Source: Arthrobacter sp. ISL-28 (GTDB taxonomy: Bacteria > Actinomycetota > Actinomycetes > Actinomycetales > Micrococcaceae). From it: a DNA stretch of 64,000 nucleotides. Where the stretch lies: the NCBI RefSeq assembly GCF_018613875.1, contig NZ_JAGGPJ010000005.1:1-64000 (forward strand), read 5' to 3'. Of the stretch, positions 42,183 to 44,617 are shown piece by piece. Within the stretch, counting starts at the first letter, position 1; each line of letters starts with the position of its first letter. The position numbers were made by a program, and so were the translations under genes. Under the pieces are notes generated by a model, which was not told where the DNA came from, did no database searches, and was given only the letters and a program-made list of their open reading frames with translations.

Positions 42183-42782
42183 GTGACCTCATCTGCTGCA
42201 CCCGGCGTCTACCCCCAGGGAATCAAACTGGGGGTGGACGTGGGCACCGTCCGCGTCGGCCTGGCGATCTGCGACAGTGACGCCATCCTGGCCACTCCCT
42301 TGAAGACCCTGGACCGCAATCCCAAGAAGAACTCGGACGTGCGGGTCATTGCCGGCCTTGCGGCGGAGCGTGGGGCAGTACAGATTTTCGTGGGCCTTCC
42401 GAGGACCATGAAAGGTGAAGAACATGCCTCCGCACGCATGGCCACGGAGTATGCCCAGTTGCTCGCAACGGAGCTTCAGCGTGCAGGATTGGACGTGCCC
42501 GTCCACCTCGTGGATGAGCGTCTTAGCACGGTTTCCGCGCACCGGCACCTCCACGAAGCTGGCATGAGCAGCAAAAATCACCGTAAAGTGGTAGATCAGG
42601 TTGCTGCTGCGGGAATTCTGCAGCACGCCATTGACATGCAAAAAGCCAGGGGAACGGATGTGGGGAGCCGCGTACGCGCGCTTTCGCAGCCGGGGCTTTC
42701 CGGAGACGCCGCAGCGGATCACGCTGCGCAGGCTGTCCCGGGGACAGAGACGCAATCTTCAGAGGACGGAAGGCTACAGTGA
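42183..42782 (+). CDS. ruvX: Putative pre-16S rRNA nuclease / Holliday junction resolvase-like YqgF (RuvX)
   Basis: A 199-residue RNase H-fold protein. The first acidic residue is in LGVDVGTVRVGLA, the FVGLPRTMKGEEHA region follows, and VDERLST carries the second. YqgF matures the 16S rRNA 5' end in E. coli and was also proposed to be a resolvase. The C-terminal 45 residues are a low-complexity tail. The GTG start is 6 nt after the alaS stop, and the gene overlaps mltG by 4 bp. Confidence 0.92.
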   Translation: MTSSAAPGVYPQGIKLGVDVGTVRVGLAICDSDAILATPLKTLDRNPKKNSDVRVIAGLAAERGAVQIFVGLPRTMKGEEHASARMATEYAQLLATELQRAGLDVPVHLVDERLSTVSAHRHLHEAGMSSKNHRKVVDQVAAAGILQHAIDMQKARGTDVGSRVRALSQPGLSGDAAADHAAQAVPGTETQSSEDGRLQ

Positions 42783-44617
42783 GCCCGGTCAACAGCGACG
42801 ACGCCTCCGGCAGGAACTTCAGGACCGCCGGACGGCCGCTGACGCGCAAGGAAATCCGAGCCCGGGAGAAGTCCCTCACGGCGGATTCCGGGGACCTCGT
42901 GCCCGAACATGCCTACGAGTCGGAGGACGACGTGCCGGACGTTCCGGATCACCCCCCGGCCGCCCCGCCGCAGCGGGCTCCGCAGGCGCCGGCACCGGCA
43001 CAGGCGCGGGTAGAGCAGCCGCTCCCCGTTGCCGTTCCGGCACCAGTTCCTGCGGCATCAGTTGCACCGATCCCATCGGCGGATGTTGTGGCACCCACGG
43101 TTGGTGTTCCCCTGGTCCCGCCCCTTTCGCCCACCATCCAGCCGACTGCTGGCCATCACGTGGACGCTGCCCCCGTTCCGCACGAGGATGTCCCCGTTCC
43201 GCACGAGTACGCGGCTGACACCCACGACTCCCATGGTGCCCACGCCGCCCATGGAGCTCACGCTGCCGACGCCTACGCCGGCGACACCCACGCTGGGCAC
43301 GCCCACGGCGCTCACAAGCATGCTGCCCACGCGGCCCCCGCCCACGTGGCTTCCGCGGATGCCGATGCTGGGGGAGCGTACGTCCACGCTGACGAGATCC
43401 AGCACCCCGCTGTCCATGCAGAAGAGGACTACGCCGCTTACCACCACGACGCTCACCACGAGGTGGCGTTCGAGGATCATGAGCCGTATGAACACGAAGC
43501 GGTCGGGCACCAGCTGCTCGGCAGCGCCGAAAGCGTGACGACCGTTGCCCGTCCGTCGAAGAAGGTCCGCCGACGACGCCGGCTGGTGGCCCTGCTGCTG
43601 ACCCTTGCACTCTTTGTCACAGCCGCAGTCGTAGGCGCCCAGTTCCTCAAACCGCTGCTCGGCGGCGGAAAACTCAGCGACTATCCCGGCCCCGGCACCG
43701 GACAGGTGAAGGTCAGCGTCCTTCCCGGCGAGGGGCCGGTATCGGTGGCGGCCAAGCTGGAGGAGGCGAGGGTGGTGGCCAACGCTGACACATTTGTTGC
43801 GGCACTCGCCGCATCGGACGGAACCCTCAACCCCGGCGAATACGACTTCAAGCAGGAAATGAAGAACGAGGACGCCGTATCCGTCCTGCTCAACGAGGGA
43901 CAGTCGAAGGTCATGTACGTCGCGTTGAACGCCGGCCTTCGGATCAACGAATCACTGGAGGCGATCTCGGAAGGCTCGGGGATTCCGGTGGCGCAGTTCA
44001 AGGCACTCAGCGACTCGCCCCAACAATTCGGGCTCCCGGCCAAGGCAAAGAACCTCGAGGGCTTCCTCGCGCCGGGCGAGCACCGGTTTCCGCTGGGCTC
44101 CACGCCGAAGGACATCCTGACGGAACTCGTCAAAGTCACCAAGGATGAACTGAAGTCGCAGGGCGTTACGGATCCCGTGAAGCAATACGATGTCGTCACC
44201 GTGGCAAGCATCGTGCAGGCTGAGGGTGGCCAGGCAGAATACAAAGATGTTGCCGGCGCCATTTACAACCGCCTCAAGCCCAACAACACTGAGACGGCCG
44301 GGCTGATCCAGTCCGATGCCACGGTCACCTACGGCCTGGGCCGGAAGAGTTTCCACATCGACGAAGACGAAAAGGCGGACAAGTCCAATCCGTACAACAC
44401 GTACGCGATCCCGGGACTGCCCGTGGGCCCCATCGGTTCGCCGGGAAAGACGGCCATCGATGCGGCGGCCAAGCCGAAGAAGAACGACTACATGTACTGG
44501 GTGACCATCAACCTGGACACCAAGGAGACCAAGTTCTCCAAGACGCTTGAGGAGCACCAGCGTTACGTTGATCAGTACAACGTCTGGTGCGAGGCCAACC
44601 CCGGCCGTTGCGTATGA
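42779..44617 (+). CDS. mltG: Endolytic murein transglycosylase MltG with His-rich cytoplasmic region
   Basis: 612 residues. The cytoplasmic part (1-265) is disordered, with a Pro/Ala segment (about 55-120) and then a histidine-rich block at about 126-248 (26 His in 123 residues). One transmembrane helix lies at about 269-290. The outer part has the LysM-like segment and the YceG/MltG catalytic domain: VASIVQAEGGQAE with the catalytic Glu, then YNRL and the SPYNTY-type segment SNPYNTYAIPGLPVGPIGSPG. MltG cuts nascent glycan strands and ends their growth. The His block is not a usual family feature. Confidence 0.93.
   Translation: MSPVNSDDASGRNFRTAGRPLTRKEIRAREKSLTADSGDLVPEHAYESEDDVPDVPDHPPAAPPQRAPQAPAPAQARVEQPLPVAVPAPVPAASVAPIPSADVVAPTVGVPLVPPLSPTIQPTAGHHVDAAPVPHEDVPVPHEYAADTHDSHGAHAAHGAHAADAYAGDTHAGHAHGAHKHAAHAAPAHVASADADAGGAYVHADEIQHPAVHAEEDYAAYHHDAHHEVAFEDHEPYEHEAVGHQLLGSAESVTTVARPSKKVRRRRRLVALLLTLALFVTAAVVGAQFLKPLLGGGKLSDYPGPGTGQVKVSVLPGEGPVSVAAKLEEARVVANADTFVAALAASDGTLNPGEYDFKQEMKNEDAVSVLLNEGQSKVMYVALNAGLRINESLEAISEGSGIPVAQFKALSDSPQQFGLPAKAKNLEGFLAPGEHRFPLGSTPKDILTELVKVTKDELKSQGVTDPVKQYDVVTVASIVQAEGGQAEYKDVAGAIYNRLKPNNTETAGLIQSDATVTYGLGRKSFHIDEDEKADKSNPYNTYAIPGLPVGPIGSPGKTAIDAAAKPKKNDYMYWVTINLDTKETKFSKTLEEHQRYVDQYNVWCEANPGRCV

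What the first reader, a model, noticed from the sequence alone, without database searches (positions are those of the whole stretch)
42779..44617. MltG with a histidine-rich cytoplasmic domain
Residues about 126-248 hold 26 His among Ala, Asp and Glu, before the membrane helix at about 269. MltG normally has a short cytoplasmic end. Such a stretch could bind Zn, Ni or Cu, or act as a pH- or phase-separation-sensitive segment linking peptidoglycan strand termination to cytoplasmic state.
Basis: seen in the sequence. Interest (0 to 1): 0.55.

Follow-up and report, generated by a model that had tools for sequence, protein, structure and literature searches.

The report
Histidine-rich disordered tail on MltG
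A wall-trimming enzyme of the soil bacterium Arthrobacter carries, on the inside of the cell membrane, a floppy tail unusually rich in histidine; the letter order of the tail drifts from species to species but its histidine richness is kept, which suggests that the chemistry of the tail is useful, although what it does is not yet known.

Summary
It is neither chance nor a quirk of this strain. In 108 distinct same-genus sequences (Arthrobacter, Pseudarthrobacter, Paenarthrobacter) the stretch from head motif to membrane holds 5.3-14.9% His, and 107 of 108 pass a strict test on the last 120 residues. In other genera of the family 8 of 66 pass, in other families of the order 4 of 64, in other orders of the class 0 of 48. 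The segment evolves fast: random pairs align at 45% identity, shuffled partners at 41%. Yet His is replenished: polarised substitutions show 19 gains and 29 losses, where a simple neutral model expects about one gain in five changes (p 0.0002-0.003). Composition, not sequence, appears to be under selection. His peaks 20-60 residues from the membrane, mixed with Asp/Glu; Cys is absent. A long MltG tail is not unusual; its His content is. My reading: a disordered acidic-His tether between a near-invariant TRKEIR head and a basic membrane anchor, tunable by protonation or metal ions. The function is inferred, not shown.

The parts
42779..44617 (+). mltG: membrane-anchored endolytic transglycosylase with a 268-residue cytoplasmic part
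   Evidence: ORF; PF02618 E 2.6e-63; TIGR00247 113.9 bits over a cut-off of 103.4
42839..42868 (+). conserved head motif, residues 21-30 (LTRKEIRARE); modelled helix 23-35; Thr22 nearly invariant
   Evidence: invariant L21 T22 R23 E25 R27 E30 in 17 sequences; T in 107 and S in 1 of 108 (the set was chosen by a motif that allows T or S there); helix H23-35 in the model
43154..43510 (+). His-rich acidic disordered segment, residues 126-244, 26 His
   Evidence: block pLDDT 30-39 over residues 121-250 with a shallow alignment
43556..43582 (+). basic juxtamembrane cluster, residues 260-268 (SKKVRRRRR)
   Evidence: K262 and R264-268 invariant in 17 sequences; the last 20 residues carry a computed +7.8 on average in 108 sequences
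43583..43639 (+). membrane helix, residues 269-287
   Evidence: hydropathy maximum; helix 261-290 in the model
43712..44572 (+). YceG catalytic domain, residues 312-598
   Evidence: PF02618; solved relatives 4iiw, 8yoa, 8yq7, 2r1f by sequence
42183..42782 (+). ruvX-like gene directly upstream, overlapping the mltG start by 4 bases
   Evidence: PF03652 E 7.3e-38; ORF ends

Best explanation
Shown: MltG of this genus has a cytoplasmic tail made of a conserved head (about residues 1-45), a Pro/Ala-rich spacer, a 100-130 residue His/Asp/Glu/Ala segment and a basic anchor at the membrane. The segment drifts in order and length, while its His content stays high. Inferred: the tail is disordered and selection acts on a bulk chemical property of the segment. 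Most likely it works as a tether or brush between the docking head and the membrane, whose charge and self-association can be changed reversibly by histidine: at cytoplasmic pH it is strongly negative (computed mean -24) next to a +8 anchor; protonation or bound divalent metal would neutralise and cross-link it, changing how MltG clusters or is placed at sites of wall synthesis, and so where nascent glycan strands are cut. The head, with its nearly invariant Thr22, would be the binding or phosphorylation site.
For: Retention in 107 of 108 same-genus sequences; near-saturated positional divergence with stable composition; His gains above a neutral expectation; peak 20-60 residues from the membrane with a sharp edge, no Cys, His often followed by His, Asp or Glu; computed charge swing; reading-frame specific: His 16.6% in frame, 1.0 and 2.0% in the other two sense frames; not seen in FtsQ, DivIVA or the class A PBPs of the same genome. 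Precedent that a disordered MltG tail is regulatory: phosphorylation of E. faecalis MltG by IreK needs T20 of its cytoplasmic segment, predicted to be disordered (PMC12369325, abstract and passages seen).
Against: No metal, pH or clustering data exist. Cytoplasmic pH and free metal are normally held where few such His would be protonated or metal-bound (recalled). Single His sites are hardly better kept than their neighbours: 22% of His sites changed in close pairs against 19-30% for Tyr, Pro, Ala, Glu and Asp. His losses still exceed gains (29 to 19). The neutral model is simple, the triples share some sequences, and alignment of repetitive sequence is noisy. Glu, Ala and Pro also show more gains than the model, so the signal is not His alone. 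Most other genera examined do without the enrichment, so it is not needed for MltG function as such.
Confidence: 0.37

Rival explanations
1. Metal-binding tail: the segment is a low-affinity Zn, Ni or Cu(II) ligand that buffers metal at the membrane or switches MltG during metal excess.
For: HH pairs (mean 3.8 per sequence), HxH in 81 and HxxxH in 97 of 108, many neighbouring acids; such binding would tolerate positional drift (inference).
Against: HH pairs are absent from some sequences (minimum 0); no Cys in any of 108; six neighbours read are alaS, ruvX and shikimate-pathway genes, none for metals; MltG is not known to need a metal (recalled).
Confidence: 0.25
2. Generic entropic spacer: any soluble, acidic, non-aggregating disordered chain would do; His is only one of several tolerated residues and was fixed early in this clade.
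For: Length varies from 147 to 269 residues; Glu, Ala and Pro are also gained above the neutral expectation, and His sites change about as often as their neighbours; other genera have long tails with less His.
Against: His is 10.5% against 1.6% in disorder-like windows of the genus; gains of His are about twice the neutral share; high His recurs in other families (L003, L009, L011, L341).
Confidence: 0.26
3. Mutational: repeat slippage (units such as VHEEP, LHHDE, AGHHD) keeps copying a His-rich seed, without selection.
For: 32 of 108 sequences contain exact tandem units with His, with 27 different shortest units; short arrays in the window.
Against: 76 of 108 have no exact unit of this kind; polarised point substitutions create His more often than the neutral model expects; no comparable tract in the genes called in the 400 kb sample, apart from probable antisense miscalls.
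Confidence: 0.08
4. The His pattern is a by-product of base composition or of an overlapping antisense gene.
For: Antisense ORFs cover the segment; the base make-up of the segment alone predicts 11.3% His (that make-up is partly caused by the His codons).
Against: Observed His exceeds the base-composition expectation in 105 of 108; no RNA family match. Conservation of the antisense ORFs was not tested.
Confidence: 0.04

Closest known systems
MltG (YceG family, TIGR00247, PF02618), endolytic transglycosylase
   Same: Catalytic domain, single membrane helix, topology; this protein is a member.
   Different: A 268-residue cytoplasmic part rich in His, where E. coli MltG is described as a membrane domain, a PG-binding domain and a catalytic domain (passage in PMC11533991).
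Enterococcus faecalis MltG, phosphorylated by IreK (PMC12369325, abstract and passages)
   Same: Extended cytoplasmic segment, predicted to be disordered, before the membrane helix; an N-terminal Thr (T20 there, T22 here).
   Different: His richness is not mentioned in the passages read; phosphorylation of the Arthrobacter protein is unknown, and equivalence of T20 and T22 is not shown.
[quoted passage not shown]
   Same: Cytoplasmic extension of a wall-strand-cutting enzyme.
   Different: Its sequence was not compared here; its His content is unknown to me.
His-rich metal chaperones and stores such as HypB, UreE and Hpn (recalled, no sequence compared)
   Same: Dense His in a flexible segment.
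   Different: Those sit on nickel-handling proteins; here the host is a peptidoglycan enzyme and no metal gene was among the six neighbours read.
Histidine-rich disordered peptides that phase-separate, squid beak proteins (PMC6884462, start of abstract seen in a search listing)
   Same: His-rich and disordered.
   Different: Extracellular eukaryotic material, Gly-rich (recalled); this segment is acidic and Ala-rich.

Membership tests
MltG / YceG family | YceG catalytic domain over the curated cut-off | tested here: met
   PF02618 214.5 bits against 32.4; TIGR00247 113.9 against 103.4
MltG / YceG family | Single N-terminal membrane helix before the catalytic domain | tested here: met
   269-287 by hydropathy; helix 261-290 in the model
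MltG / YceG family | Catalytic glutamate | tested here: inconclusive
   E482 in SIVQAEGG is invariant in 17 of 17; that this is the catalytic residue was not verified against a solved structure
MltG / YceG family | Transglycosylase activity on nascent peptidoglycan | not testable with these tools
   needs an enzyme assay
MltG with kinase-regulated disordered cytoplasmic segment (E. faecalis type) | Extended disordered N-terminal cytoplasmic segment | tested here: met
   268 residues, low hydrophobicity, low pLDDT (the shallow alignment makes low pLDDT weak evidence, parts of the catalytic domain are low too)
MltG with kinase-regulated disordered cytoplasmic segment (E. faecalis type) | Phosphorylation by a PASTA-type Ser/Thr kinase | not testable with these tools
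   T22 is conserved (T 107, S 1 of 108); phosphorylation unknown
His-rich metal-binding proteins | Measured metal binding or a metal-linked phenotype | not testable with these tools
   only sequence patterns seen
His-rich metal-binding proteins | Genomic link to metal transport or metalloenzyme maturation | tested here: not met
   six neighbours read by Pfam (alaS, ruvX, aroE, aroC, aroK, aroB; names are mine from the domains), none metal-related; no wider search was made

The most novel reading that the evidence does not exclude
A whole bacterial genus uses a composition-coded, rapidly rewritten His/acid disordered tail on its glycan-strand-cutting enzyme as a reversible pH- or metal-responsive element that places or gates wall cutting from the cytoplasmic side, a kind of control that I did not meet for any lytic transglycosylase in the paper listings seen.
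Probability: 0.3. Interest if true: 0.75.

Novelty: new variant of a known kind. Interest (0 to 1): 0.45.

Why it matters
What regulates MltG from inside the cell is open: in E. faecalis a disordered tail is a kinase target, and for S. pneumoniae its role is called unknown in the paper read. A clade in which the tail's composition is retained above a neutral expectation while its sequence drifts gives a clean system: swap or neutralise the histidines and see which property matters. It would also be a clear bacterial case of a disordered region conserved by composition rather than by sequence.

Tried and rejected
Rejected: chance composition, the other sense frames, an RNA family, a hidden known domain in residues 1-268 (no Pfam match up to E 1), a habit of envelope proteins in general (FtsQ 1 His in 97 residues counted from the upstream stop; DivIVA 2 in 237; the two class A PBPs have short cytoplasmic tails and 0.7-0.8% His overall; of the three LCP proteins two have 5 His in 74 and 2 in 58 residues counted from the upstream stop, their starts not set, and the third a short tail). 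Literature terms tried: MltG with cytoplasmic domain, Arthrobacter, Mycobacterium and Streptomyces; histidine-rich with lytic transglycosylase; YceG-like with histidine. Nothing in the listings shown (titles and starts of abstracts; 11 of 11, 1 of 1, 15 of 43, 12 of 15, 4 of 4 and 2 of 2 papers) speaks of a His-rich MltG tail; the library lacks most subscription papers. Two further searches on His-rich disorder gave only background, and the passage of PMC12288455 shown has nothing on the tail.

Led nowhere: a HHD-pattern scan of the own genome gave 72 places (29 forward, 43 reverse; 21 for the reversed control pattern) and does not hit mltG itself, so it is a poor control; of the 10 loci it returned, most looked like out-of-frame or antisense reading (my judgement). 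A search for the TRKEIR-like motif in the 400 kb sample and the window found, besides mltG, two chance-like places. The script ended in an error after its main tables; its last listing was not printed. In one search the ORF chosen for L345 and L348 was antisense; redid these.

Dropped rows: of 128 same-genus loci, 4 were left out of the counts: L077, L106 and L197 (cut by a contig end, start motif not found) and L196 (G010), whose mltG is split over two frames next to the membrane helix; the upstream frame holds 10 His in 267 residues, fewer than most. The other 124 collapse to 108 distinct sequences; named and unnamed sets overlap in species. G030 of the same genus has a broken mltG with a TGA inside and was not read. 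In the outside groups 8 of 186 loci were dropped because the start could not be set from ruvX (178 counted). Outside loci were not drawn evenly: many are best-scoring matches returned by the search, others were picked by me for genus spread or for long open frames. In one search the bands of catalytic identity, counted without gaps, hold 2943 of 5778 pairs; the rest lie under 60%, probably because a one-residue gap shifts the count.

Full report
What is there. The ORF at 42779-44617 (+) encodes 612 residues. The C-terminal part is a normal MltG: PF02618 at 312-598, TIGR00247 over its cut-off, and four solved relatives by sequence (4iiw, 8yoa, 8yq7, 2r1f). It sits between a ruvX-like gene, whose stop overlaps its start by 4 bases, and aroE-aroC-aroK-aroB; alaS lies further upstream (gene names are mine from the Pfam domains). 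The first 268 residues are cytoplasmic by the usual topology of MltG (inferred) and contain 28 His, 26 of them in residues 126-244. Pfam finds nothing in them up to E 1.

Is it more than chance. Twenty 20-kb stretches of a same-genus genome (G001) gave 276 called genes and 102142 residues with 2.17% His. Sixty-six disorder-like 60-residue windows had a mean of 1.6% and a maximum of 6.7%. The highest 100-residue counts in that sample were 16, 12, 11, 11 and three of 10; several of these, including the top one, look like antisense ORFs miscalled as genes (my judgement). MltG of the window has 22 per 100. In the frame used, His is 16.6% of the 120-residue block over 108 relatives; in the two other sense frames 1.0 and 2.0%. 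Position-specific base composition predicts 11.3%, and 105 of 108 sequences exceed their own prediction; that prediction is itself inflated by the His codons.

Relatives. A scan of genome contigs gave 80 named loci (80 kept of 95) from Arthrobacter, Pseudarthrobacter and Paenarthrobacter; whole-genome searches and fetched stretches gave further same-genus, same-family, same-order and same-class loci. Of 128 same-genus loci, counting the window's own, 124 had an intact stretch from the head motif to the membrane helix, 108 of them distinct. His in that stretch: 11 to 32 (median 22), 5.3 to 14.9% (median 10.4%), stretch length 147-269 residues. With one test for all groups (the last 120 residues before the helix, or the whole tail if shorter; binomial p below 0.001 against 2.2% His), 107 of 108 same-genus sequences pass; the exception, L208, has 8 His in 120. 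In other genera of the family 8 of 66 pass, in other families of the order 4 of 64, in other orders of the class 0 of 48. A maximum-likelihood tree of the catalytic domain (97 rows; the 27 same-genus rows were labelled His-rich as a group, the family rows by the test) puts the genus and two unnamed genera, g28 and g40, in one clade (100/97) that holds 33 of the 35 His-rich rows. In that clade 5 rows, all of g28, are not His-rich, which reads as loss or non-gain there. Two His-rich rows lie elsewhere in the family, L160 unresolved and L179 inside an otherwise His-poor group; the tree needs 5 changes of the label, of which well-supported branches force 3. L009 was given to the tree as 'not' although its short tail passes the test. 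L003, L009 and L011 have short tails of 50-59 residues with 7-8 His, so the trait may have arisen more than once.

Anatomy. In an alignment of 17 proteins the head is conserved (M1 S2 P3, L21 T22 R23 E25 R27 E30, P42) and so is the anchor (K262, R264-268); between P42 and the anchor only P114 is invariant. Counted back from the membrane helix, His is 0.1-0.3% in the first 20 residues, 22-25% at 20-60 residues, and falls off further out. His is most often followed by His, Asp or Glu; spacings of 1 and 5 are the commonest; no Cys occurs in 108 sequences. AlphaFold2 with the 17 sequences gives helix 23-35, helix 261-290 and no structure between (block pLDDT 30-47 over residues 41-260); the alignment is shallow and part of the catalytic domain is also low, so this is weak evidence for disorder. 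The low hydrophobicity and the drift are better evidence.

Drift with retained composition. Over pairs of same-genus sequences the 120-residue block aligns at 43-52% identity where the catalytic domain (counted without gaps) has 60-95%, and at 66% above that; these bands hold 2943 of 5778 pairs. For 400 random draws of pairs the identity is 45.1% against 41.5% when one partner is shuffled; His falls on His in 60% against 55%. So order is nearly lost and composition is not. In 12 disjoint close pairs the segment shows 169 synonymous and 219 nonsynonymous codons (my sums of the table, in which each nonsynonymous codon stands twice), whereas the catalytic domain of the same pairs shows 512 synonymous and 114 nonsynonymous. 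Single His sites are not much better kept than their neighbours: 22% of His sites changed, against 24% for Ala, 23% Pro, 28% Glu, 30% Asp and 19% Tyr. Polarising changes with an outgroup in 18 triples (pairs disjoint, some outgroups shared or used in other pairs, so not fully independent) gives 19 His gains and 29 losses. A single-step neutral model on the observed codons expects gains to be 17-21% of changes for transition weights 1-4 and GC bias 1-4; observed 40%, one-sided p 0.0002-0.003. Losses still exceed gains. Controls in the same data (transition weight 2, no GC bias): Glu 0.52 against 0.29, Ala 0.46 against 0.33 and Pro 0.50 against 0.33 also exceed the model; Asp 0.39 against 0.37 and Gly 0.54 against 0.55 match it; Val, Tyr, Gln and Thr lie below. 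So selection seems to hold an overall make-up (His, Glu, Ala, Pro), not His alone and not single sites. The model ignores indels, alignment error and selection on neighbouring residues.

Specificity. In the window's own genome two class A PBPs, three LCP proteins, FtsQ and DivIVA were located by family search. FtsQ has 1 His in 97 residues before its helix (counted from the upstream stop) and DivIVA 2 in 237; the PBPs have short cytoplasmic tails. Of the LCP proteins, L346 has 5 His in 74 and L347 2 in 58 residues counted from the upstream stop, with the true starts not set; L348 has a short tail.

What it may do. A computed charge (simple pKa values, His 6.5) is -23.9 at pH 7.5 and -6.4 at pH 5.5 for the 120-residue block, beside +7.8 for the last 20 residues before the helix (means of 108). 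For the window's own protein it is -19.9 at pH 7.8 and +1.7 at pH 5.5. A His/acid brush next to a basic anchor is therefore titratable and could bind divalent metal. Both would be compatible with free positional drift, because only bulk composition matters. I favour a tunable tether between the docking head and the membrane; the steps from composition to function are inferred. The nearest experimental precedent is E. faecalis MltG: PMC12369325 (abstract and passages read) reports that its cytoplasmic domain is predicted to be disordered, that phosphorylation by IreK requires T20, and that phospho-ablative and phosphomimetic forms change cephalosporin resistance; it says only a few MltG homologues have such an extension. 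PMC8135044 (passages) notes a cytoplasmic domain of unknown function in pneumococcal MltG. PMC10269899 (listing and passages) reports DivIVA-MltG interaction in Streptococcus suis; the passages shown do not say which part of MltG is bound. PMC11533991 (passages) describes the domain plan of E. coli MltG and a construct of M. abscessus MltG without its first 84 residues.

Verdict. It is a new variant of a known enzyme, not a new system. Metal binding and pH response stay open.

Noticed in passing
G094, G161, G178, G192, G232, G253, G263, G281, G290 (genus g28): Genomes of this neighbouring genus often carry two YceG genes, one in a long open frame (about 700 residues) and one in a shorter frame (about 420-490 residues); the division of labour is unknown.
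   Followed up: partly
L004, L005, L010, L012, L018, L019 (other families of the order): Short-tailed MltG proteins begin with a recurrent motif like [ST][DE]LF (DDLF in L018) followed by a basic stretch, which looks like a short linear motif of its own.
   Followed up: no
window 42839-42868 and same-family loci L058, L157, L160, L165, L177: A [ST]R(R/K)ExR motif near the N-terminus recurs in MltG tails of other genera of the family whether or not His is enriched; it may be the real docking site of the tail.
   Followed up: partly
L196 (G010) and G030:C1:1931251-1932105: Two same-genus genomes have mltG split over frames or broken by a stop; sequencing error or real loss was not decided.
   Followed up: partly
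L167, L168, L169 (genus g43): MltG of this genus has very long cytoplasmic parts of 424-624 residues (starts set by script) with 10-18 His.
   Followed up: no
window 42183-42782: The ruvX-like gene has about 48 residues beyond the RuvX domain at its C-terminus (domain 15-151 of 199).
   Followed up: no
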